Positions 33,194 to 53,425 of a DNA stretch of 64,000 bases are shown here, one piece after another. Source of the stretch: Bordetella genomosp. 10 (lineage in GTDB: Bacteria > Pseudomonadota > Gammaproteobacteria > Burkholderiales > Burkholderiaceae_B); assembly GCF_002261225.1 (NCBI RefSeq), contig NZ_NEVM01000002.1, positions 682,001 to 746,000 on the forward strand, written 5' to 3'. The notes beneath the pieces are model-generated. The model saw only the letters and a list, made by a program, of their open reading frames with translations. It was not told the origin of the DNA and did not search any database. A program made the position numbers and the translations under genes. The first letter of the stretch is position 1. Each line of letters starts with the position of its first letter.

Positions 33194-34039
33194 TCAGGTC
33201 ATCAACCACCCGCCCGCCACGTCCACCACCTGGCCGGTGATGAAGCGCGCCTGGTCCGACGCCAGGAACAGGCAGGCGTCGGCCACTTCCTCGGGCGTCC
33301 CCAGCCGCCGCAAGGCGGTGATCTCCGCCACCGCGTCGTTGATCTCCCGCGGCACGCTCTTGAGCAGGGGCGTGGCGATGCGTCCCGGCGCCACGCCGTT
33401 GACGGTGATGCCGTACTCGCCCAATTCCCCCGCCCAATGCCGCGTCAGGCCGATCAAGGCCGCCTTGGTCGCCGCGTAATGCCCGGCGACGATGTCGCAA
33501 TAGGCCTTGCCGGCGACGGAGGACATGTTGATGATCCGCCCCTGGCGCCGCCGCACCATATGCGGCGTGGTCAGGTGCGCCATGTAGTACACGCTGTTCA
33601 GGTTGACCGCCATGACGGTCTCCCATTCCTTGGGGGGCATTTCCCAGACCTTGAGGGCACGGCCATCGGTCTTGGGCGAGATGCCGACGTTGTTGACCAG
33701 GATGTCGGCGCCGCCCAGCGCCGCGCCCAGTTGGTCGCAGGCCGCCTGGCAGGCGGCGAAGTCCTGCACGTCCGCGTTGGCGTAGCGCGCGCGATGGCCG
33801 GCGGCCTCGAGTTCGGCCTGCAGCCGCGCCCCGCCTTCCGGATCGCGGTCGATGAGGCCGACGGCGGCGCCCTCGGCGGCCAGCGCGCGCGCGATGGCCG
33901 AACCGATGCCGCCGACCGCGCCCGTGACGTAGGCCGTCTGGCCGGCGAAACGCGCGCCCGGCGCGCCGCCCCCTATGGCGCCGCCCCCGTTTTCACCATT
34001 CCCGTTTGCGCCGCCACTCACGACACCTCCGCCGGCCAT
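33194..34039 (-). CDS. SDR-family oxidoreductase with Gly-rich N-terminus
   Basis: 281 residues from ATG 34039, 2 bp after the stop of the quinone-oxidoreductase gene. A disordered leader of about 30 residues rich in Gly and Asn precedes the nucleotide-binding TGAVGGIG (about 39-46). NNVGIS, catalytic YAATK (about 190) and the DVAGGWLMT end follow. Typical 3-oxoacyl-reductase-like SDR. It is the last gene of the liv operon, so it probably acts on the imported compound or a product of it. Confidence 0.88.
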   Translation of the reverse strand: MAGGGVVSGGANGNGENGGGAIGGGAPGARFAGQTAYVTGAVGGIGSAIARALAAEGAAVGLIDRDPEGGARLQAELEAAGHRARYANADVQDFAACQAACDQLGAALGGADILVNNVGISPKTDGRALKVWEMPPKEWETVMAVNLNSVYYMAHLTTPHMVRRRQGRIINMSSVAGKAYCDIVAGHYAATKAALIGLTRHWAGELGEYGITVNGVAPGRIATPLLKSVPREINDAVAEITALRRLGTPEEVADACLFLASDQARFITGQVVDVAGGWLMT

Positions 34040-34041
34040 GT

Positions 34042-35034
34042 TCACGCCTGCACCTTGAACGCGATCTTGCCGATGTGCCGGCTGCTTTCCATCAGCGCAT
34101 GCGCCTGCGCGGCCTCGGCCAGGGGAAACACCTTGTGGATCACCGGCAGGCATTTCCCCTGTTCCATCAGCGGCACCACCCTCTCCGCCAGGGCCCGGGC
34201 GATGAGCGCCTTGTCGTCGTCGCTGCGGGGCCGCAGGGTCGAGCCGGTGAAGGTCAGGCGCTTGACCATGATGGGCGTGGCGTCGATCTGCGCCTTGGCG
34301 CCTTCCAGGAAGGCGATCTGCACCACGCGCCCCTCCACCGCCAGGCAGCGGAGGTTCTTGTTGATGTATTCCCCACCCACCATATCCAGGATCACGTCGA
34401 CGCCGCGCTTGCCGGTGCCGTCCTTGATGGCGCTTTCGAAGTCCTGTTCCTTGTACAGGATGACGTGGTCGGCCCCGGCCTTGCGGCAGGCTTCCGCCTT
34501 TTCCTCGTTGCCGACGGTGGTCCAGACCTCGGCGCCGAACGCGTGCGCGAGCTGGATGGCCGTCAGGCCGATGCCGCTCGACCCGCCGTGGACCAGGAAT
34601 TTCTCGCCCTTGGCCAGGTGCGCCCGCTCGAACACATTGGTCCAGACGGTGAAGTAGTTTTCCGGCACGCAGGCCGCGGCCAGCAGATCCATGCCCTTGG
34701 GCACGGGCAGGCAATGCCGTTCGTCGGCCAGGGCGTATTCCGCGTAGCCGCCGCCGGGCGTCAGCGCGCACACGGTGTCGCCCACCTTGCGTTCCCGCAC
34801 GTCCGGTCCGACGGCGACGACGCGCCCGGAGACTTCCAGGCCTAGGTAGGGGGACGCCCCCGGCGGCGGGGGATAGGCGCCGGCGCGCTGCAGGCAGTCC
34901 GGGCGGTTGACGCCCGCATACGCCACTTCGATCAGCACCTGGCGTCCGCCGGGCTGTTCCCATTCGCGCTCGGCGAGCACCATGCAGTCGGGCGCGCCGC
35001 CCTGGCCGTGATCGATGTACTTGAATTTAGACAT
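34042..35034 (-). CDS. NAD(P)H:quinone oxidoreductase, MDR family without catalytic zinc
   Basis: 330 residues. It belongs to the QOR/PIG3 branch of medium-chain dehydrogenases: NRPDCLQRAGAYPPPPGASP near residue 50, the NADPH-binding VHGGSSGIGLTAIQLAHAFG (about 140-160), and DVILDMVGGEYINKN. The zinc-binding cysteines of alcohol dehydrogenases are missing, as expected. It lies between livF (14-bp gap) and an SDR gene in one minus-strand operon and may reduce an enone or quinone formed in the pathway. Confidence 0.9.
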   Translation of the reverse strand: MSKFKYIDHGQGGAPDCMVLAEREWEQPGGRQVLIEVAYAGVNRPDCLQRAGAYPPPPGASPYLGLEVSGRVVAVGPDVRERKVGDTVCALTPGGGYAEYALADERHCLPVPKGMDLLAAACVPENYFTVWTNVFERAHLAKGEKFLVHGGSSGIGLTAIQLAHAFGAEVWTTVGNEEKAEACRKAGADHVILYKEQDFESAIKDGTGKRGVDVILDMVGGEYINKNLRCLAVEGRVVQIAFLEGAKAQIDATPIMVKRLTFTGSTLRPRSDDDKALIARALAERVVPLMEQGKCLPVIHKVFPLAEAAQAHALMESSRHIGKIAFKVQA

Positions 35035-35048
35035 GATGAGTTCCGGTT

Positions 35049-35753
35049 TCAGTGTCCGAGATAGGCTTTCTTCACGTGCGGATCATTGAGCAGCTCCGGA
35101 CCGGTGCCGCTGCGCACGATGGCGCCATTTTCCAGCACATAGCCGCGATCCGCCAGCCGCAGCGTCCGGAACACGTTCTGTTCCACCAGCAGCACGGTGA
35201 CGCCGACGGCCGTGACCTGGCGGATGACGTCGAACATCTGCTGGACCAGCAGGGGGGAAAGTCCCAGGGAAGGCTCGTCGAACATCAACAATTTGGGATC
35301 CGCCATCATGCCCCGCGCGATGGCCACCATCTGCTGCTCGCCGCCCGAGAGCGACCCCGCCAACTGGCCCAGCCGTTCGCGCACCCGCGGGAAAATGTCC
35401 AGCACCTCGGCCATCTTGCGCTGGGCGCCGGCCCGCGCGGCGCGCTTGAACGAGCCCATCAGCAGGTTGTCGCGCACGGTGAAGTGCGGAAACAACTGGC
35501 GCCCCTCGGGGATCATGGTGATGCCCGCGTCGACGATGTCGTAGGGCGCGCGGTTGGTCAGGTCCCGGCCCATGAATTCCACCTTGCCGCCGGTGCTGGC
35601 CATGGCGCCGCACAGGGTCTTCAGCGTGGTGGTCTTGCCGGCGCCGTTGGCGCCGATCAGCGTGACGATCTCCCCGGCGTGCACCTCGAAGTCCAGGCCG
35701 TCGAGCACCTGCGTCTTGCCGTAGCCGGAGCGGAGTTTGGAGACTTTAAGCAT
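35049..35753 (-). CDS. livF: Branched-chain-type ABC transporter ATPase LivF
   Basis: 234 residues, the usual LivF length. Walker A GANGAGKTT (about residues 34-42), signature LSGGEQQ (about 136) and Walker B LLMFDEPSLGLSP are intact. It pairs with the ATPase domain of the fused LivM-LivG protein at the cytoplasmic face. Its start overlaps the end of that gene by 8 bp. Liv-type systems carry amino acids, amides, urea or small aromatic and aliphatic acids, so substrate specificity is open. Confidence 0.93.
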   Translation of the reverse strand: MLKVSKLRSGYGKTQVLDGLDFEVHAGEIVTLIGANGAGKTTTLKTLCGAMASTGGKVEFMGRDLTNRAPYDIVDAGITMIPEGRQLFPHFTVRDNLLMGSFKRAARAGAQRKMAEVLDIFPRVRERLGQLAGSLSGGEQQMVAIARGMMADPKLLMFDEPSLGLSPLLVQQMFDVIRQVTAVGVTVLLVEQNVFRTLRLADRGYVLENGAIVRSGTGPELLNDPHVKKAYLGH

Positions 35754-37527
35754 CTTGGTAGTCCTTGCCCAGGTAGGCCTCGATCACGGCGGGATGTTCC
35801 ACCACGTCGCGCGGCTTGCCGCTGACCAGCACGCTGCCTTCGTTGATGACGATGATGCGGTCGGACAGGGCCATGGTGGCCTGCATCATGTGCTCGATGA
35901 GCAGCACGGACACGCCGCTGTCGCGGATGCCGCGGATCATGCGGATGGCTTCCTCGATGTCGGTCGGATTGAGCCCCGCCATGACTTCGTCGAGCAGCAG
36001 GATGCGCGGCCGCGTCGCCAGGGCGCGGGCGATCTCCAGCCGCTTCATGCCGCCCACGGTGAGATTGCGCGCCTCGGTGTGCAGGAATCTGGTCAGGTGC
36101 GTGCGCTCGGCCACTTCGCGGGCGATCCGCTCGGCCTCGTCGCGGTCGGCGGTATTGATGAAGGCGCCCAGCATGATGTTTTCCAGGACCGACAGGCCGG
36201 TGAAAGGCTTGGCGATCTGGAAGGTGCGGCCCAGGCCCTTGCGCGCGAACTGGCTGGGCGTGGCGCATTGCACCCAGGCGCCGCCGGCGTCGCGCAGCGA
36301 GACCCGGCCCTGGTCCGGCGACAGGAAGCCCGACAGCAGATTGAACACCGTCGTCTTGCCCGCGCCGTTGGGGCCGATGACGCCGAGGATTTCGTTGCGG
36401 CCGAGTTCCAGCGAGACGTCGTTGGTGGCGCGCAGCCCGCCGAAGTTCTTGAACAGGTTCTCGGCCTTGAGCACCGGCGTGGCCTGTCCGTCGTTGGCGG
36501 CGGCGGGCGCCGCCGCCGCCCGGACCGCCGCGGCGCGCCGGGCGCCCAGATAGGGCAGGCGATCCAGCATGCGCTCCACCATGGGGCCCAGGGCGCCGGC
36601 CAGCCCGCGCGGGATGGTCAGCACCACGCCGACCAGGATCAGGCCGTAGACCAGCCCGTGCATGCCGTTGCCCGCGCCGCTCAGCCAGCCGCGCGCCAGT
36701 TCGGCGATGGGCAGCACCAGGAAGGTGCCGGCGATGGGCCCGGCGACCGTGCCCAGGCCGCCGATGAGGGCGAACATGGCGACCTGGACCGACAGGTCCA
36801 GCGAGAACGCCGAGCCCGGATCGACGAAGGTGAGATAGGTGATGTGGAAGGTGCCGACGATGCTGGTCAACGCGGCCGAGATCACCGCCGCCAGGATCTT
36901 CATGTTGACGGTATTGATGCCGACCGCGCGCGCCGCGTCCTCGCGTTCGCGGATGGCGATCAGGTAATGGCCCATGCGCGATTTGCGGATCTTCCACGAG
37001 ACCCACAGCACCACGAGGAACAGGCCGTAGGCGATGATCAGGTAGTTCAGCTTCTCGCGGAACACCATCCAGGTCCAGCCGATGTTCAGCGGCAGGCTGA
37101 TGCCGCTGGAGCCGCCGGTCCAGCTTTCCTCGTGGATGACCAGCAGCCGCACCACTTCCAGGATGGCGATGGTGGCCAGCGCGAAGAAGGGGCCTTTCAG
37201 GCGCAGGGTGGGGTAGCTGATCACCACCGCCACCAGCGCGGAGATGACCGCGCCGGCCAGCATGCCTATCCACGGCGTGATGCCGAAGTTCTGCGTCAGC
37301 AGGGTCGCCGTATAGCCCCCTATGCCGTAGAACACGGCGTGGCCCAGCGACAACTGGCCGGCATAGCCGCCGACGATGTTCCAGGCCACGGACATGGCCG
37401 AGAACACGAACAGGAGCACGAAGAGATTGATCCAGAAGGGCGTGTCCAGCAGCGCGGGCACGACGAACATGGCGATCAACAGGATCAGGCTGACGTAAGC
37501 CTTGGGGCTGCGAAAATCCGGAAACAT
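35746..37527 (-). CDS. Fused LivM permease - LivG ATPase subunit
   Basis: 593 residues. Residues 1-325 are a LivM-type permease with about nine membrane segments and the conserved cytoplasmic loop around AIREREDAARAVGIN (192-206). An Ala-rich linker (330-348) joins it to a LivG ATPase, with Walker A GPNGAGKTT at 384-392 and Walker B ILLLDEVMAGLNPTD. The ABC signature is LTVGGMKRLE rather than LSYGQ/LSGGQ, a known LivG variant. Separate livM and livG genes are usual; the fusion recurs in Burkholderiales importers. It is 12 bp downstream of livH. Confidence 0.92.
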   Translation of the reverse strand: MFPDFRSPKAYVSLILLIAMFVVPALLDTPFWINLFVLLFVFSAMSVAWNIVGGYAGQLSLGHAVFYGIGGYTATLLTQNFGITPWIGMLAGAVISALVAVVISYPTLRLKGPFFALATIAILEVVRLLVIHEESWTGGSSGISLPLNIGWTWMVFREKLNYLIIAYGLFLVVLWVSWKIRKSRMGHYLIAIREREDAARAVGINTVNMKILAAVISAALTSIVGTFHITYLTFVDPGSAFSLDLSVQVAMFALIGGLGTVAGPIAGTFLVLPIAELARGWLSGAGNGMHGLVYGLILVGVVLTIPRGLAGALGPMVERMLDRLPYLGARRAAAVRAAAAPAAANDGQATPVLKAENLFKNFGGLRATNDVSLELGRNEILGVIGPNGAGKTTVFNLLSGFLSPDQGRVSLRDAGGAWVQCATPSQFARKGLGRTFQIAKPFTGLSVLENIMLGAFINTADRDEAERIAREVAERTHLTRFLHTEARNLTVGGMKRLEIARALATRPRILLLDEVMAGLNPTDIEEAIRMIRGIRDSGVSVLLIEHMMQATMALSDRIIVINEGSVLVSGKPRDVVEHPAVIEAYLGKDYQDA

Positions 37528-37539
37528 GTCGCGCTCCTT

Positions 37540-38406
37540 TTATTCCGTGCCGACGCCGAACAGGCCGGTCGGGCGCAAGACGAGGATCAGCAGGAAGATG
37601 CCGAAGTACACCACCTCCTTGAGGTCGGGCGCGATGTAGTAGCCGGCCAGCGTATCGACCACGCCGATGATCATCGACCCGGCGACGGCGCCGTAGAGGC
37701 TGCCCATGCCGCCCAGCACGACGATGACGAAGGCGGTCAGCACGAAATAGGTGCCCACGGTCGGAAAGACCGGGTATTGCGGCGCCAGCAGGCCCGCCGC
37801 GATGCCGACGAAGGCCGTGCCCAGGCCGAAGGCCAGCACGTACACCGCCTTGACGTTCACGCCCATGAGCATGGCGGCGTAGCGGTGCTGGGCCACGGCG
37901 CGCAGCGCGCGGCCCAGGTAGGTGCGGTGCATGAACAGGTGCAGCAGGACGGCCAGGACCAGCGCGGCCAGGAAGGTGATCAACTGGCCGGTCACCATGG
38001 CGTAGTTGCCGACCGAGATCGAGTCGGTGCCCAGTTCGACGGGGGCGCGCAGCACGTTGGCGCCGAACACCACCAGGGCCAGGTTCAGCAGGATGGTGGA
38101 GATGCCCACCGTGGCGAAGATCTGGATATGCTCGTCGGCGTTGAGCAGGGGCTGTATCACCAGCCGCTGGGTCGCCGCGCCCAGCGCGAACAGGATGAGG
38201 GCCACCGGCACCAGCCCCACGTAGGGGTGGATGCCGAAATGGCTGGCGGCCAGGTACACGAGGTACATGCCTATCATCAGGAATTCGCCGTGCGCGAAGT
38301 TCACCACGCGCACGACGCCGAAAATCAGCGTCAGGCCCAGGCTGATGATGGCGTAGGCGCCGCCCAGCAACAGGCCGTTGATGATGAGTTGAATCAGGAT
38401 ATCCAT
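37540..38406 (-). CDS. livH: Branched-chain-type ABC transporter permease LivH
   Basis: 288 residues from ATG 38406, with GAGG 7 bp upstream. Eight or so membrane helices and the LivH-specific NFAHGEFLMIGMY (about 38-50) and GRALRAVAQHRYAAMLMGVN loop are present. It forms the membrane pore with the LivM part of the next gene. It lies 140 bp downstream of the binding-protein gene; that gap shows no other clear feature. Confidence 0.93.
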   Translation of the reverse strand: MDILIQLIINGLLLGGAYAIISLGLTLIFGVVRVVNFAHGEFLMIGMYLVYLAASHFGIHPYVGLVPVALILFALGAATQRLVIQPLLNADEHIQIFATVGISTILLNLALVVFGANVLRAPVELGTDSISVGNYAMVTGQLITFLAALVLAVLLHLFMHRTYLGRALRAVAQHRYAAMLMGVNVKAVYVLAFGLGTAFVGIAAGLLAPQYPVFPTVGTYFVLTAFVIVVLGGMGSLYGAVAGSMIIGVVDTLAGYYIAPDLKEVVYFGIFLLILVLRPTGLFGVGTE

Positions 38407-38546
38407 TGAGCAGCCTCGCATATGGAGGACGTGGCGCGCGCCTCCCGCGAAGCGCGCGCCGGCGCTGCCGCGCCGCGTCCTGCCGACAACTTGTATCGGG
38501 GTTGCCCGGCGCGTTTCATGGCGCGCCGCGGTCCCACAGCCCGGGT

Positions 38547-39746
38547 TTATTTATTGAAGACGGGCTTGCCGAGGGCGAGATTGCTGGGGGCGATGGTGAC
38601 CAGTTGGCCGTTCTGCCACTGCATGATGTAGAAGTCCGAGGCCTTGTTCTGGCCGTCCTCGCCGAAATCGAAGCCCCAGCCGTTGGCCGACTGGCCGGCG
38701 GGCTTCTTGTAGGCCAGCACTGCCGCGCGGATCTTGTCCTTGTCGGTCGACTTGGCGTTGGCGATGGCTTCCAGGAAGACCTTGGCGCCGACGTAGTTGG
38801 TCAGGCTGTGGCCGGACTGCGGGTCGCTCTTGTACGCGGCCTTGTAGGCCTGCAGGAACTTGTCCAGGCCGGGCGCGCCGGCGGGATTGATGGAGGATTG
38901 CGGGAAGTCGAGGTCGAACACGCCGTTCATGCCGGCGCCCACGGCCTTGGCGGTGTCGGCCAGCGAATAGCCGCCGCCCGCGCCGATGACGACCTTGGGC
39001 TTGAAACCCGCCGCCTTGGCCTGGTTGAAGTAAAGGATGGCGTCGTTCTGGTAGGCGGTCTGCAGCACCACGTTCACGCCGGCGCCCTTCAGGCGCAGGA
39101 TGAGCGAGGACAGGTCCACCGTCTTGGCCGAGTAGGGCAGCACCTCGGCGACGGTATAGCCCAGTTCCGCGGCGCGCTGCTTCTCGGTGGCGGCCACGTC
39201 GGTGCCGTAGGGGCCGTCCTCGTGGATGATGCCGATCTTGATGTCCTTGGGATTCAGGCCCATGCCCGGCGCGACGATGTCGTGCAGGGCGTTGACCACC
39301 GAGACGCCGTACAGCGCGGTGTTGGGATTGGTGCGGAACAGGTATTTGTAGCCGCGCGTGGTGATCTTGTGCGCCGTGGCGCCCAGTTCGAAGTAGGGCA
39401 CGCCCGCCAGCTCGGTGACCGGCGAGGCGGCGTAGGAGATGCCGGAGGCATAGCTGCCGAACACGCCGACGACGTTGGAGGAGATCAGGCGCTTGGTTTC
39501 CGACACGGCCTGGTTGGGATCGACGGCGTCGGCCTTGAGGATCTCGACCTTCTCGCCGTTGATGCCGCCGGCGGCGTTGACTTCATTGACCGCCAGCTCC
39601 AGGCCGCGGAAGCTTTCCTGGCCCAGCAGGGCCAGCGCGCCGCTGAAGGGGAAAAGCGCGCCGACCTTGATGTCGGCATGCGCGGCCGCGCTGGCCAGCA
39701 CGCCGCAGGCGCCCAGCGCCAAGGCGATTTTCCTGATCTTGAACAT
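38547..39746 (-). CDS. Periplasmic ABC substrate-binding protein, LivK-like
   Basis: 399 residues from ATG 39746 (AGGAG 8 bp upstream). A signal peptide ends AAAHA before DIKVGALFPFSGALALLGQE, the standard start of a type I periplasmic binding protein (Peripla_BP_6). It is first in the liv-QOR-SDR operon and delivers the substrate to the LivH/LivMG permease. Binding residues do not reveal the ligand, but clustering with catabolic genes suggests a carbon source rather than plain amino-acid uptake. Confidence 0.92.
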   Translation of the reverse strand: MFKIRKIALALGACGVLASAAAHADIKVGALFPFSGALALLGQESFRGLELAVNEVNAAGGINGEKVEILKADAVDPNQAVSETKRLISSNVVGVFGSYASGISYAASPVTELAGVPYFELGATAHKITTRGYKYLFRTNPNTALYGVSVVNALHDIVAPGMGLNPKDIKIGIIHEDGPYGTDVAATEKQRAAELGYTVAEVLPYSAKTVDLSSLILRLKGAGVNVVLQTAYQNDAILYFNQAKAAGFKPKVVIGAGGGYSLADTAKAVGAGMNGVFDLDFPQSSINPAGAPGLDKFLQAYKAAYKSDPQSGHSLTNYVGAKVFLEAIANAKSTDKDKIRAAVLAYKKPAGQSANGWGFDFGEDGQNKASDFYIMQWQNGQLVTIAPSNLALGKPVFNK

Positions 39747-40095
39747 ATGTCTCGCTCCTTGTTGATGGTCTGATCGCGGTGCCTTGCCGCTTGCGCGGCC
39801 CCTCGCGCCGCCCCTGCGGGGACGCGTCGGGCGTCCGGTCGAACGCAATGCTCCAGGCTCTGCCCCAGGCCTGCCCGGGGCCTTCGAAAGGGCCCTCGGT
39901 GCGGCGTTGGATGGTACATAATATATGATATATTTTTAAAAAACACCCACCGGCAGGTGATTTATTCTAGAGGGCGACCCAGGCGCGTGCATGGGGGATT
40001 TCCCCAACACGCCGGGCGCCGCGCAACGGATCGCGGGCCACGGCGCGGAGTCATCCGGACTCCCGCCGCGAGCCCGGCGACACAGGAGACGAAGC
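39747..40095. other. 349-bp divergent promoter region between livK-like and SDR genes
   Basis: No gene was seen. The left half is GC-rich leader of the binding-protein gene. The centre holds an AT-rich operator (separate entry at 39921) followed by an A tract and a small CACC-ggca-GGTG inverted repeat near 39947-39958. The right part leads to the AGGAG of the SDR at 40096. Confidence 0.5.
39921..39933. promoter_or_regulatory. AT-rich palindrome, shared operator copy 1
   Basis: ATATAT-G-ATATAT is a perfect palindrome around one base, followed by TTTTA. The same block (ATATATSATATATTTTTA) occurs at 44855 next to the GntR gene. It is about 175 bp from the livK-like start and 163 bp from the divergent SDR start. 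Such runs of AT are very rare in this GC-rich DNA. Confidence 0.65.
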
Positions 40096-40878
40096 ATGTT
40101 CGAGGATTGCAGTTTGCGTGGCCGCAAGGTGTTGATCACCGCCGGCGCCGATGGCCTGGGATTGGAGATGACGCGCCTGTTCCATGCCGCCGGCGCATCC
40201 CTGCTGGTGTGCGACATCAACGCGGCGCGGCTGGACGACCTGCGGCGCGACCTGCCCGGCGTGGCCACCACCGTGGCCGACGTCTCGGACGAGGCGAGCG
40301 TGGCCCGCTTGTTCGAACAGGTCGGCGCGAGCCTCGGCGGCCTCGATATCCTGATCAACAACGCCGGCGTGGCCGGGCCCACGGGTTTCGTGGAGGACCT
40401 GTCCAAGGCCGATTGGGACCGCACGCTGGCGGTGAACATCACCGGGCAGTTCCTGTGCGCGCGCCTGGCCGTGCCGCTGCTGAAGACGTCGACGGCGGGG
40501 GTGATGATCAACCTGTCGTCCGCCGCCGGCCATCTGGGCTTCGCGGGCCGGTCGGCCTATTCGGCTTCCAAGTGGGCGGTGGTGGGCTTCACCAAGTCGC
40601 TGGCGATCGAGCTGGGGCCGCACGGCGTGCGGGTCAACGCCATCCTGCCCGGCGCGGTGGAGGGGCCGCGCATCCGCGCGGTGATCGACGCCAAGGCCAG
40701 GACGCTGGGCCGGCCGGTCGAGGAGATCGCCACGCAGTACGAGAACCAGGCCGTGCTGGGACGCATGGTCACCGCGCGCGACATCGCCAATATGGTGCTG
40801 TTCAACGCCAGCGACGCGGCGCGCAGCGTGACGGGCCAGGCCATCGTCATCGACGGCCTGACGCAGAAACTCTATTGA
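40096..40878 (+). CDS. SDR-family oxidoreductase
   Basis: 260 residues from ATG 40096 with AGGAGACGAAGC in front. The nucleotide-binding motif is the variant TAGADGLG (residues 12-19) instead of TGxxxGxG. NNAGVAG, the catalytic YSASK (about 150-154) and a closing GQAIVIDGLTQKLY follow. It is the first of three co-directional genes (SDR, hydroxyacid dehydrogenase, BKACE) divergent from the liv operon. Confidence 0.88.
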   Translation: MFEDCSLRGRKVLITAGADGLGLEMTRLFHAAGASLLVCDINAARLDDLRRDLPGVATTVADVSDEASVARLFEQVGASLGGLDILINNAGVAGPTGFVEDLSKADWDRTLAVNITGQFLCARLAVPLLKTSTAGVMINLSSAAGHLGFAGRSAYSASKWAVVGFTKSLAIELGPHGVRVNAILPGAVEGPRIRAVIDAKARTLGRPVEEIATQYENQAVLGRMVTARDIANMVLFNASDAARSVTGQAIVIDGLTQKLY

Positions 40879-40899
40879 TTGGATGCGGAGGGCATCGAC

Positions 40900-41871: not shown

Positions 41872-41914
41872 TCGGGTCCGCCCAAGACGCAAGAACCCCC
41901 ACGGAGAGAGACAC

Positions 41915-42850
41915 ATGGCCACCAAGAAGAAAGTCGTGATCACCTGCGCCGTCACCGGCGCCATCCATACGCCCAGCATGTCGCCGTACCTGCCGGTGAC
42001 GGCCGACGAGATCGCCGAGGCCGCCATCGGCGCGGCCCGCGCGGGCGCCGCCATCCTGCACCTGCACGCGCGCGATCCCGAGACCGGCAAGCCGTCGCAG
42101 GATCCGGCGCTGTTCGAGCCCTTCCTCAAGCGCATCAAGGCCGAGACCGACGCCGTCGTCAACATCACCACGGGCGGCAGCCCGCACATGACGGTGGCCG
42201 AGCGCATGCGCCCGGCGTCGACCTTCAAGCCGGAAGTGGCGTCGCTGAACATGGGGTCGATGAATTTCGGCCTGTTCCCGATGCTCAACCGCTTCAAGGA
42301 ATTCAAGCACGACTGGGAGCGCGAGCACCTGGAGAACAGCCGTTCGCTGATCTTCCGCAACACCTACCAGGACATCGAGGACATCCTGACCATCGGCAAT
42401 GCCAACGGCACGCGCTTCGAGTTCGAGTGCTACGACATCAGCCACCTGTACAACCTCAAGCACTTCATGGATCGCGGCCTGATCAAGTCGCCGCCCTTCA
42501 TCCAGTCGGTGTTCGGCATCCTGGGCGGCATCGGGCCGGACCCCGAGGACCTGATGCATATGCGGCGCACGGCCGACCGGCTGTTCGGGACGGGGGGCTA
42601 CGAGTGGTCCATCCTCGGCGCCGGCCGCGCGCAGATTCCGCTGGCGACCATGGGCGCGGCGATGGGCTCGAACGTGCGCGTCGGCCTGGAGGATTCGCTG
42701 TGGATCGGGCCCGGGCAACTGGCGCAGTCCAACCGGTCGCAGGTCGAGCGCATCCGCACCATCATCGAAGCGCTCAACCTGGAAGTGGCCACGCCCGACG
42801 AGGCCCGCGAGAAGCTGGGCCTGAAGGGCGGAAACAACGTGGCGTTCTAG
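41915..42850 (+). CDS. Beta-keto acid cleavage enzyme (BKACE, DUF849)
   Basis: 311 residues, full length. The zinc-binding HLHARD (H49, H51) and the opening VVITCAVTGAIHTPSMSPYL are diagnostic, with NITTGGSPHMTVAERM further on. BKACE enzymes condense a 3-oxo acid with acetyl-CoA and cleave it to acetoacetate plus a new acyl-CoA. The preceding dehydrogenase gene fits the supply of the 3-oxo acid. Known members act on 3-keto-5-aminohexanoate, dehydrocarnitine and related compounds; the substrate here is unassigned. AGAGAGA stands upstream of ATG 41915. Confidence 0.9.
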   Translation: MATKKKVVITCAVTGAIHTPSMSPYLPVTADEIAEAAIGAARAGAAILHLHARDPETGKPSQDPALFEPFLKRIKAETDAVVNITTGGSPHMTVAERMRPASTFKPEVASLNMGSMNFGLFPMLNRFKEFKHDWEREHLENSRSLIFRNTYQDIEDILTIGNANGTRFEFECYDISHLYNLKHFMDRGLIKSPPFIQSVFGILGGIGPDPEDLMHMRRTADRLFGTGGYEWSILGAGRAQIPLATMGAAMGSNVRVGLEDSLWIGPGQLAQSNRSQVERIRTIIEALNLEVATPDEAREKLGLKGGNNVAF

Positions 42851-42880
42851 GCCACGGCACCCGCCCGGGCGCCGCGCCGT

Positions 42881-43951
42881 TCAGCCGGCGCGCCGCTTCA
42901 GCGCGCCGGCCAGTTCGTCGACGGTGAGCGCATGGCCGAAGTTGGCGGCATGGCGGGCCTTCAGCGTGAGTTCGGCGGCGAGGCGCAATTGCCCGTCGTC
43001 GATGTCACCCGCGCCCAGGGCCTTCAGCGTGGTGGGCAGGCCGGTGGCGGCGTACCAGTCCTCCAGTCCTGCCAGCACCCGGTCGTCGCGCCGTTCCAGA
43101 TCCAATTGAACCAGCAGCCCCAGGGCCACCTGCAAGCCGTGCATGGCGCGGCCCACGCCGGCGATGCGCGGCAAGCCGCGGGTCAGGGCGTGGGCGATGG
43201 ACAGGCCGCCGCTTTCGAAACCCAGGCCGCTCATCAGGATCATGGCTTCGACCGCGCGCTCGAATGCCGGGGTGGGCTGGCCGCTGCCCGCCGCCGACAA
43301 GGCCGCGGCGCCGTCGTCGATCAGCGTGCGGTAGCAACCGTCGGCGATCAACTGCGCCGTCAGCGTGGAGGCGCCGCCGTACATATTGGGACCGCCCGCC
43401 GCATGGCACTGCGCCGCTTCGAATTTCTTGGAAATGGCATCGCCCAGGCCGGCGCGGAAGAAATGCGCGGGCGCGGTCGCCACCAGGGCCGTATCGACGA
43501 TCACCATCGTCGGGTTGAACAGCATGTGCTCGACCGCCACCAGGTTGTGATGCTCGTCATACAGCACATAGTTCTTGCTGGTGGGCGCGTCGTTGGAGGC
43601 GACCGTCGGCACGGTGACCAGGTGGCCGTGCAGGGCGCGGGCCACGGCCTTGCCGGCGTCCAGCGCCTTGCCGCCGCCCACGGCCACCACCGCGCGGGCC
43701 GGCGTGGCGGCGGCGCGCCGGCACAGCGCCTGGATGGAGGCCGGCGTCATTTCGCCTTCGACCGGCAGGACGTGGGTGGCGACCCCGCTCGCCTCGCACA
43801 GGCCGCGCAGCCGCGCGCCGTGGACGTCGAGGACGTAGCTGTCGATGACCAGCGCGGCGTGCGGGCCGAACAGCGCCATCGCCTCGCCCAGACGCGCGAC
43901 GGCGTCCGGCCCCTGGATGTAGCGGCTGGGGCCGCCGAATATTTTCAGCAC
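42881..43951 (-). CDS. Iron-type (group III) alcohol dehydrogenase, glycerol-dehydrogenase-like
   Basis: 356 residues. NAD-binding AVGGGKALDAGKAVA lies near 90-105, followed by VPTVASNDAPTS. Metal ligands of the glycerol dehydrogenase family are visible in GLGDAISKK (Asp), IAHALTRG (His) and GRAMHGLQVALGLL (His). It oxidises a polyol or hydroxy compound in the cytosol. It converges with the BKACE gene and follows the GntR gene on the same strand, 120 bp downstream, in the middle of the catabolic island. Confidence 0.88.
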   Translation of the reverse strand: MLKIFGGPSRYIQGPDAVARLGEAMALFGPHAALVIDSYVLDVHGARLRGLCEASGVATHVLPVEGEMTPASIQALCRRAAATPARAVVAVGGGKALDAGKAVARALHGHLVTVPTVASNDAPTSKNYVLYDEHHNLVAVEHMLFNPTMVIVDTALVATAPAHFFRAGLGDAISKKFEAAQCHAAGGPNMYGGASTLTAQLIADGCYRTLIDDGAAALSAAGSGQPTPAFERAVEAMILMSGLGFESGGLSIAHALTRGLPRIAGVGRAMHGLQVALGLLVQLDLERRDDRVLAGLEDWYAATGLPTTLKALGAGDIDDGQLRLAAELTLKARHAANFGHALTVDELAGALKRRAG

Positions 43952-44071
43952 GATGTCTCCTCGTTCTTATGTCGTCTTGTCCGGCGGGCCCTGCGGCCGG
44001 GGCCGCCGCGCTCGCCGCGCCGCGGATGCGGCGGCCATGCTTCCGACGGCCGCCTGCCGCGCGGCCGGGCG

Positions 44072-44782
44072 TCATTTCCTCGCCGGCACGGCGTCTTCCA
44101 GCGCTTCCTGTTCCTTTTCCTTCTCGATCAGCCAGTCGATCATGATCTTGCCGCCCCAGGAAATGTCGGCTTGCAGGGCCGCGCGCGCGGCTTCGGCGTC
44201 GCGCGCCTTCAAGGCCTCGAGCACGGCTTCATGCCGGTGCTGGCCCTGCGAATAATCCAGGCCGGCGGTCTTGACGTGGAAGACTTTCAGGATGGGGCCG
44301 GTAATGACCCAGAACGATTCCACCGTGGTGCGCAGCACCGGCATGCGGCTGGCTTCGAGGATCGCGAAGTGGAACTTGCGGTTCAGGTAGCTGGCGCGCT
44401 TGGGGTCGGTGGAGGTGCAGCCGATGAACTGCGCCTGCAGGGCCACCAGGTTGTCGAGCTGCTTGGGGGTGATCTGGCGCGCGGCCTCCGCGGCGCCCAT
44501 GCCTTCCAGGTGGAAGCGGATCTGCTGGATTTCGCTGAGCTTGGCCGAATTGACGTAGGGCACGTAGACGGCGGTGGCCGCCTGCATTTCCAGGCCTTGC
44601 TCGCTGATCAGGCGGAAGATGGCTTCGCGCACCGGCGTGATGGAGACGCCCAGGGCCTGCGCGAGCTCGCCGATGATCAGGCGTTCCCCCGGCTCGTACT
44701 GGCCGTTGATCAGGGCTTCGCGGATTTCGTTGTAGACCCGGACCGAGAGATTTTCTTTCTTGACCGGCTTCAGGTTGACCAT
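44072..44782 (-). CDS. GntR regulator, FCD-domain subfamily
   Basis: 236 residues from ATG 44782. Winged helix: INGQYEPGERLIIGELAQAL then GVSITPVREAIFRLISEQGL (about 25-65). The all-helical FCD domain follows, with LNRKFHFAILEAS and GQHRHEAVLEAL. It is divergent from the split transketolase operon, and an AT-rich palindrome in the gap also occurs 5 kb away before the liv and SDR/BKACE genes. It is the best candidate regulator of the whole second half of the island. Confidence 0.9.
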   Translation of the reverse strand: MVNLKPVKKENLSVRVYNEIREALINGQYEPGERLIIGELAQALGVSITPVREAIFRLISEQGLEMQAATAVYVPYVNSAKLSEIQQIRFHLEGMGAAEAARQITPKQLDNLVALQAQFIGCTSTDPKRASYLNRKFHFAILEASRMPVLRTTVESFWVITGPILKVFHVKTAGLDYSQGQHRHEAVLEALKARDAEAARAALQADISWGGKIMIDWLIEKEKEQEALEDAVPARK

Positions 44783-44854
44783 GTCTTGCGCGTCGAAAAA
44801 AGGGAGAGGAAATTTTAGCCTGCGCCGCGCTTTTTTCGGCTTATTCGCTATATT

Positions 44855-44867
44855 ATATATCATATAT
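44855..44867. promoter_or_regulatory. AT-rich palindrome, shared operator copy 2
   Basis: ATATAT-C-ATATAT followed by TTTTA matches the site at 39921 over 18 bases, apart from the symmetric centre base. It lies 26 bp before the transketolase start and 73 bp before the divergent gntR start, a position suited to repression of both. Confidence 0.65.
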
Positions 44868-44892
44868 TTTTACGATAACGAGGAGACAGACC

Positions 44893-45786
44893 ATGGCCCA
44901 AGCGCCTGGCGCGCCCGTCGAGGCGCATCCCGCAAGCGGGGCGGCGGCCCTGGCGCCCGAGCAACTGGCGCGCTTGCGGGAGAAGGCCCGCTTCATCCGC
45001 CTGGAAACGCTGCGGCTGATCGAGATCGCCAAGGTGGGACACTACAGTTCGGTGTTTTCCTGCGCGGAGATCTTCGCCGCGCTCTATTACGACGTCATGC
45101 GCCTGCGCGACGGCGATCCGGGCTGGGCCGGCCGCGACCGCTTCCTCATGGGCAAGGGCCATGCCGCGGTGGGCCTGTTTCCCGTGCTGGCGGACCACGG
45201 CTTTTTCGACAAGTCGCTGCTGGACGGCTACACGCGCCTGGGCAGCCCGCTGGGCGACCATCCGGACATGACCAAGGTGCCGGGCGTCGACTTCAGTTCG
45301 GGCTCCATCGGCCATGCCTTGTCCAACGGCGCCGGCATGGCGCTGGGCGGCCGCCTGGCCGGCGGCGATTTCGATGTCTTCGTCATGCTGGGAGACGGCG
45401 AGATGCAGGAAGGGCAGGTGTGGGAAGCCGCGCTGTTCGCCGCCCACCATCGCCTGGGCCGGCTGGTGGCCATCGTCGACCGCAACGGCTATCAGCTCGA
45501 CGGCAAGGTCGACGACGTCATGGGCGTCGAATCGCTCAAGGACAAATGGTCCAGCTTCGGCTGGCAGGTGCACGAGGTCGACGGCCACGACCTGGCGGCG
45601 CTGGCGCCCCTGCTGCGCCGGCTCAAGGCGGACCGGACGCGCGCGCAACCGGCCTGCGTGATCGCGCGCACCGTCAAGGGCAAGGGCGTGTCCTACATGG
45701 AGAAGGAGCCCGGCTGGCATCTGGGATATCTGGCCCCGGAAGACGCGCGGCGCGCGCGCGAAGAAATCATGGCGCGGGAGATCTGA
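44893..45786 (+). CDS. Transketolase, N-terminal (TPP-binding) subunit
   Basis: 297 residues, the half-length typical of split transketolases. KGHAAVGLFPVLADHGFF lies near residues 85-102, and the thiamine-diphosphate motif GDGEMQEG ... IVDRNGYQLDG near 165-200. ATG 44893 has ACGAGGAGA upstream. With the next gene it makes a complete enzyme that moves a two-carbon ketol unit between sugars. Split transketolases in catabolic clusters often act on unusual sugars (for example sulfofructose), so this is probably pathway-specific. Confidence 0.92.
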   Translation: MAQAPGAPVEAHPASGAAALAPEQLARLREKARFIRLETLRLIEIAKVGHYSSVFSCAEIFAALYYDVMRLRDGDPGWAGRDRFLMGKGHAAVGLFPVLADHGFFDKSLLDGYTRLGSPLGDHPDMTKVPGVDFSSGSIGHALSNGAGMALGGRLAGGDFDVFVMLGDGEMQEGQVWEAALFAAHHRLGRLVAIVDRNGYQLDGKVDDVMGVESLKDKWSSFGWQVHEVDGHDLAALAPLLRRLKADRTRAQPACVIARTVKGKGVSYMEKEPGWHLGYLAPEDARRAREEIMAREI

Positions 45787-45788
45787 CG

Positions 45789-46880
45789 ATGACACGGCAA
45801 GCGAATTCCAGGGACGGGCAGGGCGAAGGGCATGCGCGGAATGACGCGGACCGCGGCGGCGCCGTGGGCGCCGGCACGCACGTCGAGGCGGCCGCGCCGC
45901 GCTCGCCGGACTCCTGGCAGTACCGCGCGCTGAACGCGCTCAATCCCGGGCTGTCCTATTTGTCGGATGCCTTGATTGAATTGACGCAGGCGGGCCATCC
46001 CATCGTGGCGGGCGCCGCCGACCTGCAGTATTCCAACGGCCTGAACCGCTACGCCCAGGCCTATCCCGAGCGGTACGTACAATTCGGCATCTCGGAGCAG
46101 AACATGGTGTCGGCGGCGGCCGGGCTGGCGACGACCGGGCACATGCCTTTCGTCGCCACCTTCGCGTCCTTCCTGGGACTGCTGTGCTGCGAACAGATCC
46201 GCATGGACGTGGCCTATACGCGGCTGCCGGTGCGGCTGATCGGGCACCATACCGGCATCAGCCTGGGTTTCTACGGCACCTCGCATCACGCCACGGAAGA
46301 TATCTCCACCATGCGCGCCATCGCGGGCTTGACCGTGGTGTCGCCCGCCGACGGGCCGCAACTGGCGTCGGCGATCAAGGCCTCGGTCGACTGGCCGGAG
46401 CCCATCTATTTCCGCATCGGCCGCGGGCGCGAGCCGCAGGTGTACCAGGACGGGCAGCCCTTCAGCTTCGGCAAGGCCATCGTGCACGCCGAGGGCGCGG
46501 ACCTGACGCTGATCGCCTGCGGCATCGGCGTGCGGGCGGCGCTGGACGCCGCCCAGGCCTTGCGCGCCGAGGGCCATTCCGTGGGCGTCGTCGACATGCC
46601 CACCATCAAGCCGCTGGACCGCGAGGCGGTGCTGCGCGCGGCCGCCGGCTGCCGTTTGCTGGTCACGGTGGAAGAACACAACGTGCTGGGCGGGCTGGGG
46701 TCGGCGGTGGCCGAGGTGCTGGCCGACGAAGGCCTGGGCGTGCGCCTGTACCGTCACGGCATCCAGGACGAGTACAGCCTGATCGCGCCGCCGACCACGC
46801 TGTACGCCCACTATCGTCTGGACGCCGACGGCGTGGCCCAGGTGGCCCGCGAACAACTTGCCAAGGGGAAACGAGGATGA
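45789..46880 (+). CDS. Transketolase, C-terminal subunit
   Basis: 363 residues, 2 bp after the N-terminal subunit gene. The first 45 residues are a charged, probably disordered leader. The pyrimidine-binding domain follows with FGISEQNMVSAAAGLATTGH (catalytic glutamate of the ISEQ motif, about residue 103), then HHTGISLGFYGTSHHATEDI. The C-terminal domain is marked by EHNVLGGLGSAVAEVL. Its stop overlaps the next gene (ATGA). Confidence 0.92.
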   Translation: MTRQANSRDGQGEGHARNDADRGGAVGAGTHVEAAAPRSPDSWQYRALNALNPGLSYLSDALIELTQAGHPIVAGAADLQYSNGLNRYAQAYPERYVQFGISEQNMVSAAAGLATTGHMPFVATFASFLGLLCCEQIRMDVAYTRLPVRLIGHHTGISLGFYGTSHHATEDISTMRAIAGLTVVSPADGPQLASAIKASVDWPEPIYFRIGRGREPQVYQDGQPFSFGKAIVHAEGADLTLIACGIGVRAALDAAQALRAEGHSVGVVDMPTIKPLDREAVLRAAAGCRLLVTVEEHNVLGGLGSAVAEVLADEGLGVRLYRHGIQDEYSLIAPPTTLYAHYRLDADGVAQVAREQLAKGKRG

Positions 46881-47734: not shown

Positions 47735-47750
47735 GGCCAGAGGAAGGGCC

Positions 47751-49337
47751 ATGGCCGATTTCGATTTCATCATCGCCGGCGGCGGCACCGCCGGCTGCAT
47801 CCTGGCCAACCGGCTGACCGCCGACGGCCGCCATCGCGTGCTGCTGATCGAGGCGGGCGAGGATGCCGCCAGCATGTGGGTCGGCATCCCCGCCGGCTTC
47901 AGCAAGCTGCTGGTGGACCCGCGCTTCAACTGGTGCTTCGCCACCGAGCCCGAGGAAAACACGCGCGGCCGCGTGATTTCCGTGCCGCGCGGCAAGGGCC
48001 TGGGCGGTTCGACGCTGATCAATGGCGGCATCTACGTGCGCGGCCAGCGGCAGGACTACGACGGCTGGGCGGCGGCGGGCGCAGCGGGCTGGAGCTACGC
48101 GGAGGTCGAGCCCTATTTCCGCCGGCTGGAGCGCTATGCGCAGGGCGGTCCGTCGCGCGGCAAGGACGGCCCCATGTACCTGACCCAGGTGCGCGAGCGC
48201 TATCCGCTGGCCGATGCCTTTTTGGCGGCGGCGCGCGAAGACGGGCAGCGCATCAACGAGGACTACAACGGCGAACGCCAGGAAGGCTTCGGCTATTACC
48301 AGGTGCTGCAGAAGGACGGCCGCCGCTGGAGCGCCGCCGACGGTTACCTGAAGCCGGCGCGCGGCCGCGCCAACCTGCGCGTGGAGTCCGAGGCGCGGGT
48401 GCTGCGCCTGGTGTTCGAGGGAAAGCGCTGCGTGGGCGTGGTCTATCGCCAGCGCGGCCAGGACGTGACCGTGCGCGCCGCGCGCGAGGTCCTGCTGTGC
48501 ATGGGCGCGGTGCAGTCGCCGCAGATGCTGGAGCTGTCCGGGATCGGCGATCCGGAACGCCTGCGGGCCCTGGGCGTTTCGCTGGTGCACGCGGCGCCGC
48601 AGGTGGGCGAGAACTACATCGATCACTACGCGACGCGCATGAACTGGCGGGTCAAGGGGACGGTGACCTTGAACGAGATGTCGCGCGGCTGGCGGCTGGC
48701 GCGCCAGGTCGCGCTCTACTATGCCGCCCGGCGCGGCATACTCACCCTGGGGACCGGCCTGGTGCACGGCTTCGTCAAGTCGCGGCCGGAGATGGCGGAG
48801 CCCGACGTGCAGTATTTCTTCGTGCACGCCAGCTACGCCAACGCGGCCGAACGCATCCTCGACCGGCACCCGGGCATGACGCTGGGGGTGGCGCAGTTGC
48901 GGCCGCAATCGGTGGGCAGCATCCACGCCCGCACGCCCGATCCCGCCGACGCGCCGGCCATCCGGCCCAACTTCCTGGCCGCCCAGGCCGACCGCGATGC
49001 CCTGGTGCACGGCATGGAAGCGGCGCGCCGCATCGTCGGCCGGCCCGCGATGGCGCGCTACATCGACGCCGAGACCAGTCCGGGCGCGGCGGTGCGCAGC
49101 TACGACGAATGGCTGGACTTCGCGCGGCGCAACGGGCAGACCATCTATCACCCCATCGGCACCTGCCGCATGGGCGAGGACGAGGCCGCGGTCACCGATC
49201 CGCGCCTGCGCGTGCGCGGCGTGCAAGGGCTGCGCGTGGTCGATGCGTCGGTCATGCCCAGGATGGTCTCCGGCAACACGCAGGCCGCGGTGATGATGGT
49301 GGCGGAGAAGGCCGCGGACCTGATCCTGGAACGCTGA
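47751..49337 (+). CDS. GMC-family FAD oxidoreductase (choline dehydrogenase-like)
   Basis: 528 residues. The N-terminal FAD motif is FIIAGGGTAGCILANRL, followed by the GMC signature GKGLGGSTLINGGIYVRGQ (about residues 82-100). LCMGAVQSPQMLELSGIGDP is the second signature, and catalytic His lies in YHPIGTCRMG (about 462-471). It oxidises a primary alcohol or polyol and passes electrons to a membrane acceptor or oxygen. It is the last gene of the transketolase operon, 16 bp after the AroE-like gene. The substrate is unknown. Confidence 0.92.
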   Translation: MADFDFIIAGGGTAGCILANRLTADGRHRVLLIEAGEDAASMWVGIPAGFSKLLVDPRFNWCFATEPEENTRGRVISVPRGKGLGGSTLINGGIYVRGQRQDYDGWAAAGAAGWSYAEVEPYFRRLERYAQGGPSRGKDGPMYLTQVRERYPLADAFLAAAREDGQRINEDYNGERQEGFGYYQVLQKDGRRWSAADGYLKPARGRANLRVESEARVLRLVFEGKRCVGVVYRQRGQDVTVRAAREVLLCMGAVQSPQMLELSGIGDPERLRALGVSLVHAAPQVGENYIDHYATRMNWRVKGTVTLNEMSRGWRLARQVALYYAARRGILTLGTGLVHGFVKSRPEMAEPDVQYFFVHASYANAAERILDRHPGMTLGVAQLRPQSVGSIHARTPDPADAPAIRPNFLAAQADRDALVHGMEAARRIVGRPAMARYIDAETSPGAAVRSYDEWLDFARRNGQTIYHPIGTCRMGEDEAAVTDPRLRVRGVQGLRVVDASVMPRMVSGNTQAAVMMVAEKAADLILER

Positions 49338-53411: not shown

Positions 53412-53425
53412 GACGGGCCTCGGCA

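What the first reader, a model, noticed from the sequence alone, without database searches (positions are those of the whole stretch)
33194..49337. Undescribed catabolic pathway joining BKACE, split transketolase and an AroE-like enzyme
A dedicated Liv importer, four SDR/dehydrogenases, a lambda-crystallin-type hydroxyacid dehydrogenase plus BKACE, an iron-type alcohol dehydrogenase, a split transketolase, a non-canonical shikimate-dehydrogenase relative and a GMC oxidase lie together under a common operator. I know no described pathway with this set. A reading consistent with the families: a polyhydroxy acid or branched sugar acid is imported, oxidised several times, cut by transketolase to a two-carbon unit, and a 3-oxo acid is cleaved with acetyl-CoA by BKACE. 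The order of steps is inference.
Basis: partly seen in the sequence, partly recalled or inferred. Interest (0 to 1): 0.75.

Follow-up and report, generated by a model that had tools for sequence, protein, structure and literature searches.

The report
Three-module catabolic cluster, substrate unknown

Summary
The unit was drawn too small. The full cluster is about 27031-49337. Module A: GntR1, two SDRs, fused E1 plus E2 of a ThDP 2-oxo-acid/acyloin dehydrogenase. Module B: Liv importer, PIG3-type dehydrogenase, SDR, AroE-like enzyme, GMC oxidase. Module C: SDR, lambda-crystallin-type dehydrogenase, BKACE. The split transketolase is accessory: two of the four nearest relatives lack it genome-wide, and two genomes hold A+B+C in one run without it. 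BKACE belongs to the 3,5-dioxohexanoate/3-oxohexanoate branch; the AroE-like enzyme lacks shikimate's carboxylate-clamp serines. Best model: a hydroxylated compound is imported, oxidised to a 2-oxo acid or acyloin, cut by E1-E2, and finished by 3-oxidation and BKACE to acetoacetate plus an acyl-CoA. Substrate and order are inferred. I found no description of the set in the searches named.

The parts
27031..27822 (+). SDR0, short-chain dehydrogenase (module A)
   Evidence: Pfam adh_short_C2 227 bits; recurs directly before E1
27831..30020 (+). E1: fused alpha-beta E1 of a ThDP-dependent 2-oxo-acid/acyloin dehydrogenase (module A)
   Evidence: Pfam E1_dh + Transket_pyr + Transketolase_C; in 27 of 29 AroE-like genomes, 8 of 122 others
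30017..31372 (+). E2: dihydrolipoyl acyltransferase, lipoyl + E3-binding + catalytic domains (module A)
   Evidence: Pfam; NCBIfam TIGR01349 432 bits, cutoff 445
31444..32280 (+). SDRa, short-chain dehydrogenase (module A)
   Evidence: Pfam; start uncertain
32346..33107 (+). GntR1, FCD-type regulator (module A)
   Evidence: Pfam GntR + FCD; start uncertain
33194..34039 (-). SDRb, short-chain dehydrogenase (module B)
   Evidence: Pfam; in 42 of 80 AroE-like loci, flank-limited
34042..35034 (-). PIG3-family MDR oxidoreductase (module B)
   Evidence: TIGR02824 455 bits, cutoff 297; in 38 of 80 loci
35049..35753 (-). LivF ATPase (module B)
   Evidence: Pfam ABC_tran
35746..37527 (-). LivM-LivG fused permease-ATPase (module B)
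   Evidence: Pfam BPD_transp_2 + ABC_tran + BCA_ABC_TP_C
37540..38421 (-). LivH permease (module B)
   Evidence: Pfam BPD_transp_2
38547..39746 (-). LivK-type substrate-binding protein (module B)
   Evidence: Pfam Peripla_BP_6; nearest solved chain 8wch, 164 bits
39921..39933 (.). operator ATATATGATATAT between LivK and SDRc
40096..40878 (+). SDRc, short-chain dehydrogenase (module C)
   Evidence: Pfam; travels with BKACE in several genomes
40900..41871 (+). HCDH, lambda-crystallin-type 3-hydroxyacid dehydrogenase (module C)
   Evidence: nearest solved chain 3ado lambda-crystallin, 232 bits; NF004783 445 bits, cutoff 347
41915..42850 (+). BKACE, beta-keto acid cleavage enzyme (module C)
   Evidence: PF05853 368 bits; NF053538 565 bits, cutoff 430
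42881..43951 (-). glycerol-dehydrogenase-like enzyme (accessory)
   Evidence: NF006941 330 bits, cutoff 336; 1kq3
44072..44782 (-). GntR2, FCD-type regulator
   Evidence: Pfam; the longer ORF to 44863 would run into the operator
44855..44867 (.). operator (reverse complement of ATATATGATATAT) between GntR2 and TktN
44893..45786 (+). TktN, N-terminal half of split transketolase (accessory)
   Evidence: Pfam Transketolase_N
45789..46880 (+). TktC, C-terminal half of split transketolase (accessory)
   Evidence: nearest solved chain 6yaj, split transketolase, 219 bits
46877..47734 (+). AroEL, AroE-fold dehydrogenase, not shikimate-type (module B)
   Evidence: start probably later, many relatives are about 265-270 aa
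47751..49337 (+). GMC oxidoreductase (module B)
   Evidence: Pfam; in 61 of 62 full-flank AroE-like loci; nearest solved chain 8b7s

Best explanation
SHOWN BY SEQUENCE: window 27031-49337 is one catabolic super-cluster of three modules that also exist apart and recombine: A (GntR1, SDRa, SDR0, E1, E2), B (Liv importer, PIG3-MDR, SDRb, AroEL, GMC) and C (SDRc, HCDH, BKACE). B, C and the accessory genes carry the GntR2-linked operator; A has a different conserved upstream region. INFERRED MECHANISM: the Liv system imports a hydroxylated, shikimate-unlike compound; GMC, AroEL and SDRs oxidise its hydroxyls; the resulting 2-oxo acid or acyloin is cut by the ThDP E1-E2 complex (E3 from elsewhere in the genome) to an acyl-CoA; SDRc/HCDH oxidise the 3-hydroxyl of the remaining short acid; BKACE, with acetyl-CoA, cuts the 3-oxo acid to acetoacetate and an acyl-CoA. 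The split transketolase and the glycerol-dehydrogenase-like enzyme are a side route for an alpha-ketol or aldehyde product in part of the Alcaligenaceae.
For: A+B+C in one run, with Liv2 and at least LivF and part of LivMG of the Liv1 importer, and no transketolase, in G068 (L136+L156) and G098 (L137+L157). E1-E2, B, C and transketolase together, E1 to AroEL under 20 kb, in 7 genomes (G002, G131, G045, G012, G026, G022, G020). E1 within 20 kb of AroEL in 17 of the 27 genomes of the draw holding both (1 more about 45 kb away, 9 elsewhere). Operator in 42 of 42 vs 0 of 38 loci. The BKACE family model names 3,5-dioxohexanoate; [quoted passage not shown] SDR+BKACE acting on a free 3-hydroxy acid has a genetic precedent (PMC6365646, passages). 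An ALDH (15 of 80 loci) and a GlcD-like oxidase (20 of 80) join the same B core in other lineages, fitting alcohol to aldehyde to acid and 2-hydroxy acid to 2-oxo acid. A further ThDP enzyme type (acetolactate-synthase-like) sits in the AroEL clusters of Sinorhizobium and Halomonas.
Against: No substrate, product or expression data. 18 of 62 full-flank AroEL loci have none of the three ThDP types within about 10 kb, and six AroEL genomes (G025, G027, G029, G031, G032, G034) have neither E1 (E<=1e-100) nor TktC (E<=1e-60) anywhere, so neither step is universal; the acetolactate-synthase-like type was not searched genome-wide. E1 lies on another contig or over 1 Mb away in 9 of 27 genomes. BKACE is common without AroEL (33 of 122), and BKACE also occurs without SDRc/HCDH matches beside it (L144) or with other genes between (L145, L152). 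The roles and direction of AroEL, SDRb and PIG3-MDR and the order of steps are unassigned. Family statistics are not corrected for relatedness.
Confidence: 0.45

Rival explanations
1. One reading: a polyhydroxy or branched sugar acid is oxidised and cut by the split transketolase to a two-carbon unit, then BKACE finishes a 3-oxo acid; the E1/E2 block is a neighbour with another job.
For: TktC directly upstream of AroEL in 14 of 14 genomes that have it in the family draw; same operator; a glycerol-dehydrogenase/glycolaldehyde-reductase-like enzyme lies beside it; LacI-type regulators related to sugar regulators in other lineages.
Against: Transketolase missing genome-wide in G001, G003, G007 and five Pollutimonas/Pusillimonas-group genomes that keep the locus, and in the all-in-one genomes G068 and G098. 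At the position of an Asp in the solved split transketolase it has Tyr, invariant in 35 of 35 C halves; this changes the site but does not exclude transketolase activity.
Confidence: 0.15
2. A cyclitol or other alicyclic polyol is the substrate: AroEL and SDRs make a cyclic acyloin or 1,2-dione, and a ThDP enzyme opens the ring (cyclohexane-1,2-dione-hydrolase-like logic), with ALDH and BKACE finishing the open chain.
For: AroE fold natively handles a cyclohexene acid; the acetolactate-synthase-like enzyme of the Halomonas cluster also matches cyclohexane-1,2-dione hydrolase (159 bits), though plant acetolactate synthase better (206 bits); ALDH in 15 of 80 loci.
Against: The ALS-like enzyme is in only 2 of the 80 loci; AroE relatives include the 5-ketofructose reductase, whose substrate is a sugar; no ring-specific enzyme identified.
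Confidence: 0.2
3. Carnitine-like pathway: HCDH is an L-carnitine dehydrogenase and BKACE a dehydrocarnitine cleavage enzyme, with the choline-dehydrogenase-like GMC acting on a quaternary ammonium alcohol.
For: HCDH's second and third NCBIfam matches are carnitine dehydrogenases; GMC's best are choline dehydrogenase models.
Against: HCDH scores 192 and 172 bits against cutoffs 592 and 414; GMC 551 against 605 and 463 against 732; BKACE passes a different model, for 3,5-dioxohexanoate.
Confidence: 0.05
4. Three independent pathways parked side by side by a shared habit of clustering catabolic genes; no metabolite passes between them.
For: Each module is also found as a separate locus: A with its own importer (L122-L124, L135), C behind another importer (L140, L141, L143), B without E1 in the genome in G025; A has a different upstream region from the operator-bearing genes.
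Against: Repeated joining in different orders in alpha-, beta- and gamma-proteobacteria, including a one-strand run E1-E2-E3-PIG3-SDRb-AroEL-GMC-SDRc-HCDH-BKACE (L136, L137).
Confidence: 0.15

Closest known systems
Oxidative deoxyribonate catabolism (Price et al. 2019, PMC6365646, passages read)
   Same: SDR oxidises a free 3-hydroxy acid, BKACE is proposed to cleave the 3-oxo acid to acetoacetate and an acyl-CoA
   Different: In the passages seen no AroE-like, GMC, E1-E2 or transketolase is named; here an extra lambda-crystallin-type dehydrogenase; whether the BKACEs are orthologous was not tested
BKACE15 of Paracoccus denitrificans (PDB 8RIO/8RIP; PMC11961710, passages read)
   Same: Full-length match, 446 bits (an uncharacterised chain, 3e49, is nearer at 511); same family and likely similar neutral or hydroxylated C5-C6 3-oxo acids
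   Different: Its physiological role is stated there as unknown; its context is said there to suggest aromatic degradation
Split transketolase of Carboxydothermus hydrogenoformans (PDB 6yaj)
   Same: Two-gene transketolase; C half 219 bits over 296 residues
   Different: EDGASHQ there, FYGTSHH here, invariant in 35 of 35
AroE-fold family: P. putida SDH-family protein 4k28 and 5-ketofructose reductase 7cok
   Different: HSxSP of shikimate enzymes reads HVxTP here
2-oxo-acid / acetoin dehydrogenase complexes (E1-E2-E3)
   Same: Fused E1 and lipoyl E2; E3 beside them in relatives
   Different: E1 passes no NCBIfam cutoff (best 242 vs 394 bits); substrate class undecided

Membership tests
BKACE (beta-keto acid cleavage enzymes) | PF05853 domain over full length | tested here: met
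   368 bits, residues 6-303
BKACE, 3,5-dioxohexanoate subgroup (NF053538) | curated equivalog cutoff | tested here: met
   564.8 bits, cutoff 430, residues 1-311
BKACE, 3,5-dioxohexanoate subgroup (NF053538) | cleavage of 3,5-dioxohexanoate with acetyl-CoA | not testable with these tools
   needs assay
Carnitine degradation | L-carnitine dehydrogenase cutoff (NF005471/NF005716) | tested here: not met
   172 vs 414 and 192 vs 592 bits
Shikimate dehydrogenase (AroE) | catalytic Lys and Asp | tested here: met
   K88 and D125 invariant in 24 of 24 aligned; residue roles recalled
Shikimate dehydrogenase (AroE) | two serines binding the carboxylate (HSxSP) | tested here: not met
   V36 invariant in 24 of 24, T38 replaced by A or V in some; aligned to HSFSP of 1nvt; role of the serines recalled
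Shikimate dehydrogenase (AroE) | NCBIfam cutoffs | tested here: not met
   TIGR00507 168.5 vs 200.2; none of the 17 AroE-type models listed is passed
Transketolase, split form | ThDP half and pyrimidine/C half as separate ORFs with GDG and Glu motifs | tested here: met
   GDG in 35 of 35 N halves; GISEQN in 33 and GIAEQN in 1 of 35 C halves, 1 gapped there
Transketolase, split form | two-carbon ketol transfer | not testable with these tools
   needs assay
2-oxo-acid dehydrogenase complex | E1 with both halves plus lipoyl-domain E2 | tested here: met
2-oxo-acid dehydrogenase complex | dedicated E3 in the operon | tested here: not met
   no E3 ORF called between 27031 and 33107; E3 present in relatives L135, L136, L137
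Oxidative deoxyribonate pathway | SDR and BKACE in one gene run | tested here: met
   SDRc and BKACE, with HCDH between
Oxidative deoxyribonate pathway | orthology to the fitness-tested SDR and BKACE | not tested
   reference sequences not retrieved
Glycerol dehydrogenase (GldA) | curated cutoff NF006941 | tested here: not met
   329.9 vs 336 bits

The most novel reading that the evidence does not exclude
An undescribed modular pathway in which a polyhydroxylated compound is taken through an AroE-fold dehydrogenase acting on a non-shikimate substrate, then a ThDP E1-E2(-E3) complex that removes carbon as CO2 or aldehyde and hands a 3-hydroxy acid to a dehydrogenase-BKACE module; each segment can also stand with its own Liv-type importer, so the bacteria can enter the same pathway at three depths. 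A 2-oxo-3-deoxy-type intermediate (2-oxo acid with a 4-hydroxyl) would connect the modules chemically without any extra enzyme type except a thioesterase or CoA-transferase.
Probability: 0.35. Interest if true: 0.75.

Novelty: new variant of a known kind. Interest (0 to 1): 0.5.

Why it matters
If right, it gives a physiological home to a BKACE subgroup whose structurally studied member has no known role, and to a widespread clade of proteins annotated 'shikimate dehydrogenase' that lack the usual shikimate carboxylate clamp. It also gives a ready reporter (a 13-bp operator, genome-wide nearly unique) for finding the inducing compound.

Tried and rejected
Rejected: alternation of transketolase with E1 as mutually exclusive ThDP enzymes. 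It looked so from 10-kb flanks (no locus of 80 held both), but whole-genome searches showed that all 14 transketolase genomes of the family draw also carry E1 and seven hold both within 20 kb. Rejected: carnitine pathway (cutoffs). Rejected as a lead: an 836-aa neighbour of SDRc-HCDH-BKACE in L140 that I first guessed to be a dimethylglycine-type dehydrogenase is a fused Liv permease-ATPase-ATPase. Led nowhere: the context of the transketolase pair in two Xanthobacter genomes (beside a Bax1-I family gene, family-tested in L118 only); the Sinorhizobium route to published phenotypes (no papers searched by locus tag); the solved structure nearest LivK (8wch; ligand not known to me). Literature: searches returned no papers; one (PMC7954740, passages read); four and fifteen listed of 108, listing only, none on this set judging by titles and abstract starts; thirteen on BKACE, of which passages of two were read.

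Limits. One search kept the best 80 of 208 confirmed AroE-like loci, so counts over '80 loci' lean to close relatives. The 24 rows of alignment A1 are the window plus 23 of 120 listed hits (1888 found). Thresholds for gene presence were chosen by me per family (40-60 per cent identity, half the query length), and 18 of the 80 loci have shortened flanks. Gene calls come from a codon-score script trained on the window's own genes, which performs poorly on lower-GC loci (e.g. L063, L066, L146-L148, L154, L165 show few or no genes), so absences there were not counted. Of the 20 regions I rely on L136-L141, L143 and L149; L142 and L150 (in genomes that do have AroEL) show the same C layout; L151 has SDRc-BKACE without an HCDH call, L144 BKACE alone, L145 and L152 the three genes with others between; the rest were poorly called or not used. 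In the family draw the tool counted but did not list 102, 117, 96 and 71 genomes without a match. The AroEL threshold of 1e-90 misses AroE-like genes of 53-56 per cent identity in G068, G098 and G155, which sit in the same run as E1, so '8 of 122' overstates E1 without AroEL. The species label is uncertain: the 98 per cent match is named Achromobacter aloeverae, but another A. aloeverae strain gives 87-90 per cent.


Full report
What is there. The window is from an Achromobacter-like bacterium (the AroE-like protein is 98% identical to one named Achromobacter aloeverae, though another strain of that name gives 87-90%). Two corrections: the 'iron-type alcohol dehydrogenase' is closest to glycerol dehydrogenases, and GntR2 should start at about 44782, because the longer ORF would overlap the operator.

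The operator. ATATATGATATAT occurs at 39921 and, on the other strand, at 44855, and nowhere else in the window within two mismatches; five single-base shuffles gave none. Among the 80 AroE-like loci kept it is present in all 42 that carry GntR2 and in none of the 38 that do not. It stays with LivK where the importer has moved (L051) and with GntR2 where the transketolase is missing (L001, L003, L010). In 28 of 28 whole genomes searched there were 56 exact sites: 54 at this cluster (G023 and G041 partly by spacing only) and 2 elsewhere (G009:C33, G039:C4); the reversed pattern gave 0. That GntR2 is the binding protein is inference.

The real extent. In a draw of 151 genomes of the family, AroEL (E<=1e-90) is in 29 and E1 (E<=1e-290) in 27 of those 29 but 8 of the other 122 (Fisher 1.6e-20, not corrected for relatedness). 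In 17 of the 27, E1 and AroEL lie within 20 kb; in one about 45 kb; in nine on another contig or over 1 Mb away. Module A's upstream region is conserved among four relatives but has a different sequence from the operator, so A is probably not under the same control.

Three modules and an accessory. Elsewhere the genes fall into units. Module A occurs as a separate locus with its own importer, Liv2-SDR0-E1-E2-E3 divergent from SDRa-GntR1 (L124, L135 fullest; L122, L123, L131 partly in view); a glyoxalase-family ORF follows E1 in L135 and, by similarity, in L138 and L139. In G105 it occurs without AroEL at the threshold used (L166). Module B recurs in alpha-, beta- and gamma-proteobacteria: of 62 full-flank AroEL loci GMC is in 61, LivK in 53, SDRb in 34 and PIG3 in 31, the last three limited by the 10-kb flanks. 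Module C occurs behind another importer (L140, L141, L143, in genomes without AroEL at the threshold); the importer was family-tested in L140. In G068 and G098 one strand reads Liv2-SDR0-E1-E2-E3-PIG3-SDRb-AroEL-GMC-SDRc-HCDH-BKACE, with LivF and part of LivMG of the Liv1 importer just beyond SDRa-GntR1; G155 has the same run without BKACE in view (L149). Seven genomes have E1-E2, B, C and transketolase with E1 to AroEL under 20 kb, as in the window (G002, G131, G045, G012, G026, G022, G020).

The transketolase. TktC (E<=1e-100) is in 14 of 151 genomes, all 14 among the 29 with AroEL and directly adjacent to it. But at E<=1e-60 it is absent from 19 of 37 AroEL genomes searched whole, including G001 and G003, two of the four nearest relatives; the other two, G002 and G131, have it. 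In two Xanthobacter genomes it lies away from AroEL. Its GFYGTSHH motif is invariant in 35 of 35 sequences, where the solved split transketolase reads EDGASHQ and chain 6rjb (human, recalled) EDGPSQ. From memory, this aspartate (D469 in E. coli, D477 in yeast) reads the acceptor's 2-hydroxyl, so an acceptor without that group is a reasonable guess, no more.

BKACE and its partners. BKACE passes the NCBIfam model for 3,5-dioxohexanoate:acetyl-CoA transfer (564.8 vs 430). For BKACE15, a solved relative (446 bits; [quoted passage not shown] A pathway in which an SDR and a BKACE degrade 2-deoxyribonate is supported by mutant fitness and growth data, its cleavage step without direct evidence (PMC6365646, passages). 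HCDH fails the carnitine-dehydrogenase cutoffs.

How it may work. Reading the families in an order that fits the lineages: primary alcohol oxidation (GMC, with ALDH in 15 of 80 loci), 2-hydroxy acid oxidation (a GlcD-like oxidase in 20 of 80, or the SDRs), ThDP cleavage of the 2-oxo acid or acyloin (E1-E2), 3-hydroxyl oxidation (SDRc, HCDH), BKACE (counts). In G013 and G135 A and C adjoin with SDRc and BKACE but no HCDH match (L138, L139), so HCDH may serve a second stereoisomer or a second hydroxyl. All of this is inference. The place of AroEL, SDRb and PIG3 is open. Against it: six AroEL genomes have neither E1 nor TktC anywhere at the thresholds used, so at least there another cutting step must serve.

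Novelty. Every part belongs to a known family; I found no description of the combination in the open-access library, which lacks most subscription journals. Hence 'new variant of a known kind'.

Noticed in passing
window 51891-57031: A predicted efflux set beside the cluster: FUSC-type fusaric acid resistance family protein and HlyD-type adaptor and an outer membrane efflux protein.
   Followed up: no
window 57951-64000: Enoyl-CoA hydratase, family III CoA-transferase and hydantoinase/oxoprolinase-type genes on the minus strand, with an NCS1 allantoin-permease-like gene at 49392-51005.
   Followed up: no
L085 4498-6243; L077 8348-10063: Acetolactate-synthase-like ThDP enzyme (NCBIfam PRK06112 subfamily, 963 and 859 bits, cutoff 673) inside AroE-like/GMC/Liv clusters of Sinorhizobium meliloti pSymA and Halomonas.
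   Followed up: partly
L135 853-1650: A 47% identical AroE-like paralogue heads a module A operon with its own Liv importer.
   Followed up: partly
L118, L119: The split transketolase pair stands apart from the AroE-like cluster in two Xanthobacter genomes, beside a Bax1-I family gene in L118.
   Followed up: partly
L087 1-3766: On a Comamonadaceae plasmid, GntR, 3-hydroxyacyl-CoA dehydrogenase and BKACE sit between an altronate-dehydratase family gene and the Liv-SDR-ALDH-AroE-like-FAD oxidase-GMC run.
   Followed up: no
L086 18228-21141: An old-yellow-enzyme family oxidoreductase and electron-transfer-flavoprotein genes follow the AroE-like cluster on an Acidovorax plasmid.
   Followed up: no
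window 26870-27035: A GATAAG-containing element upstream of the E1 operon, conserved in four relatives, distinct from the GntR2-linked operator.
   Followed up: partly
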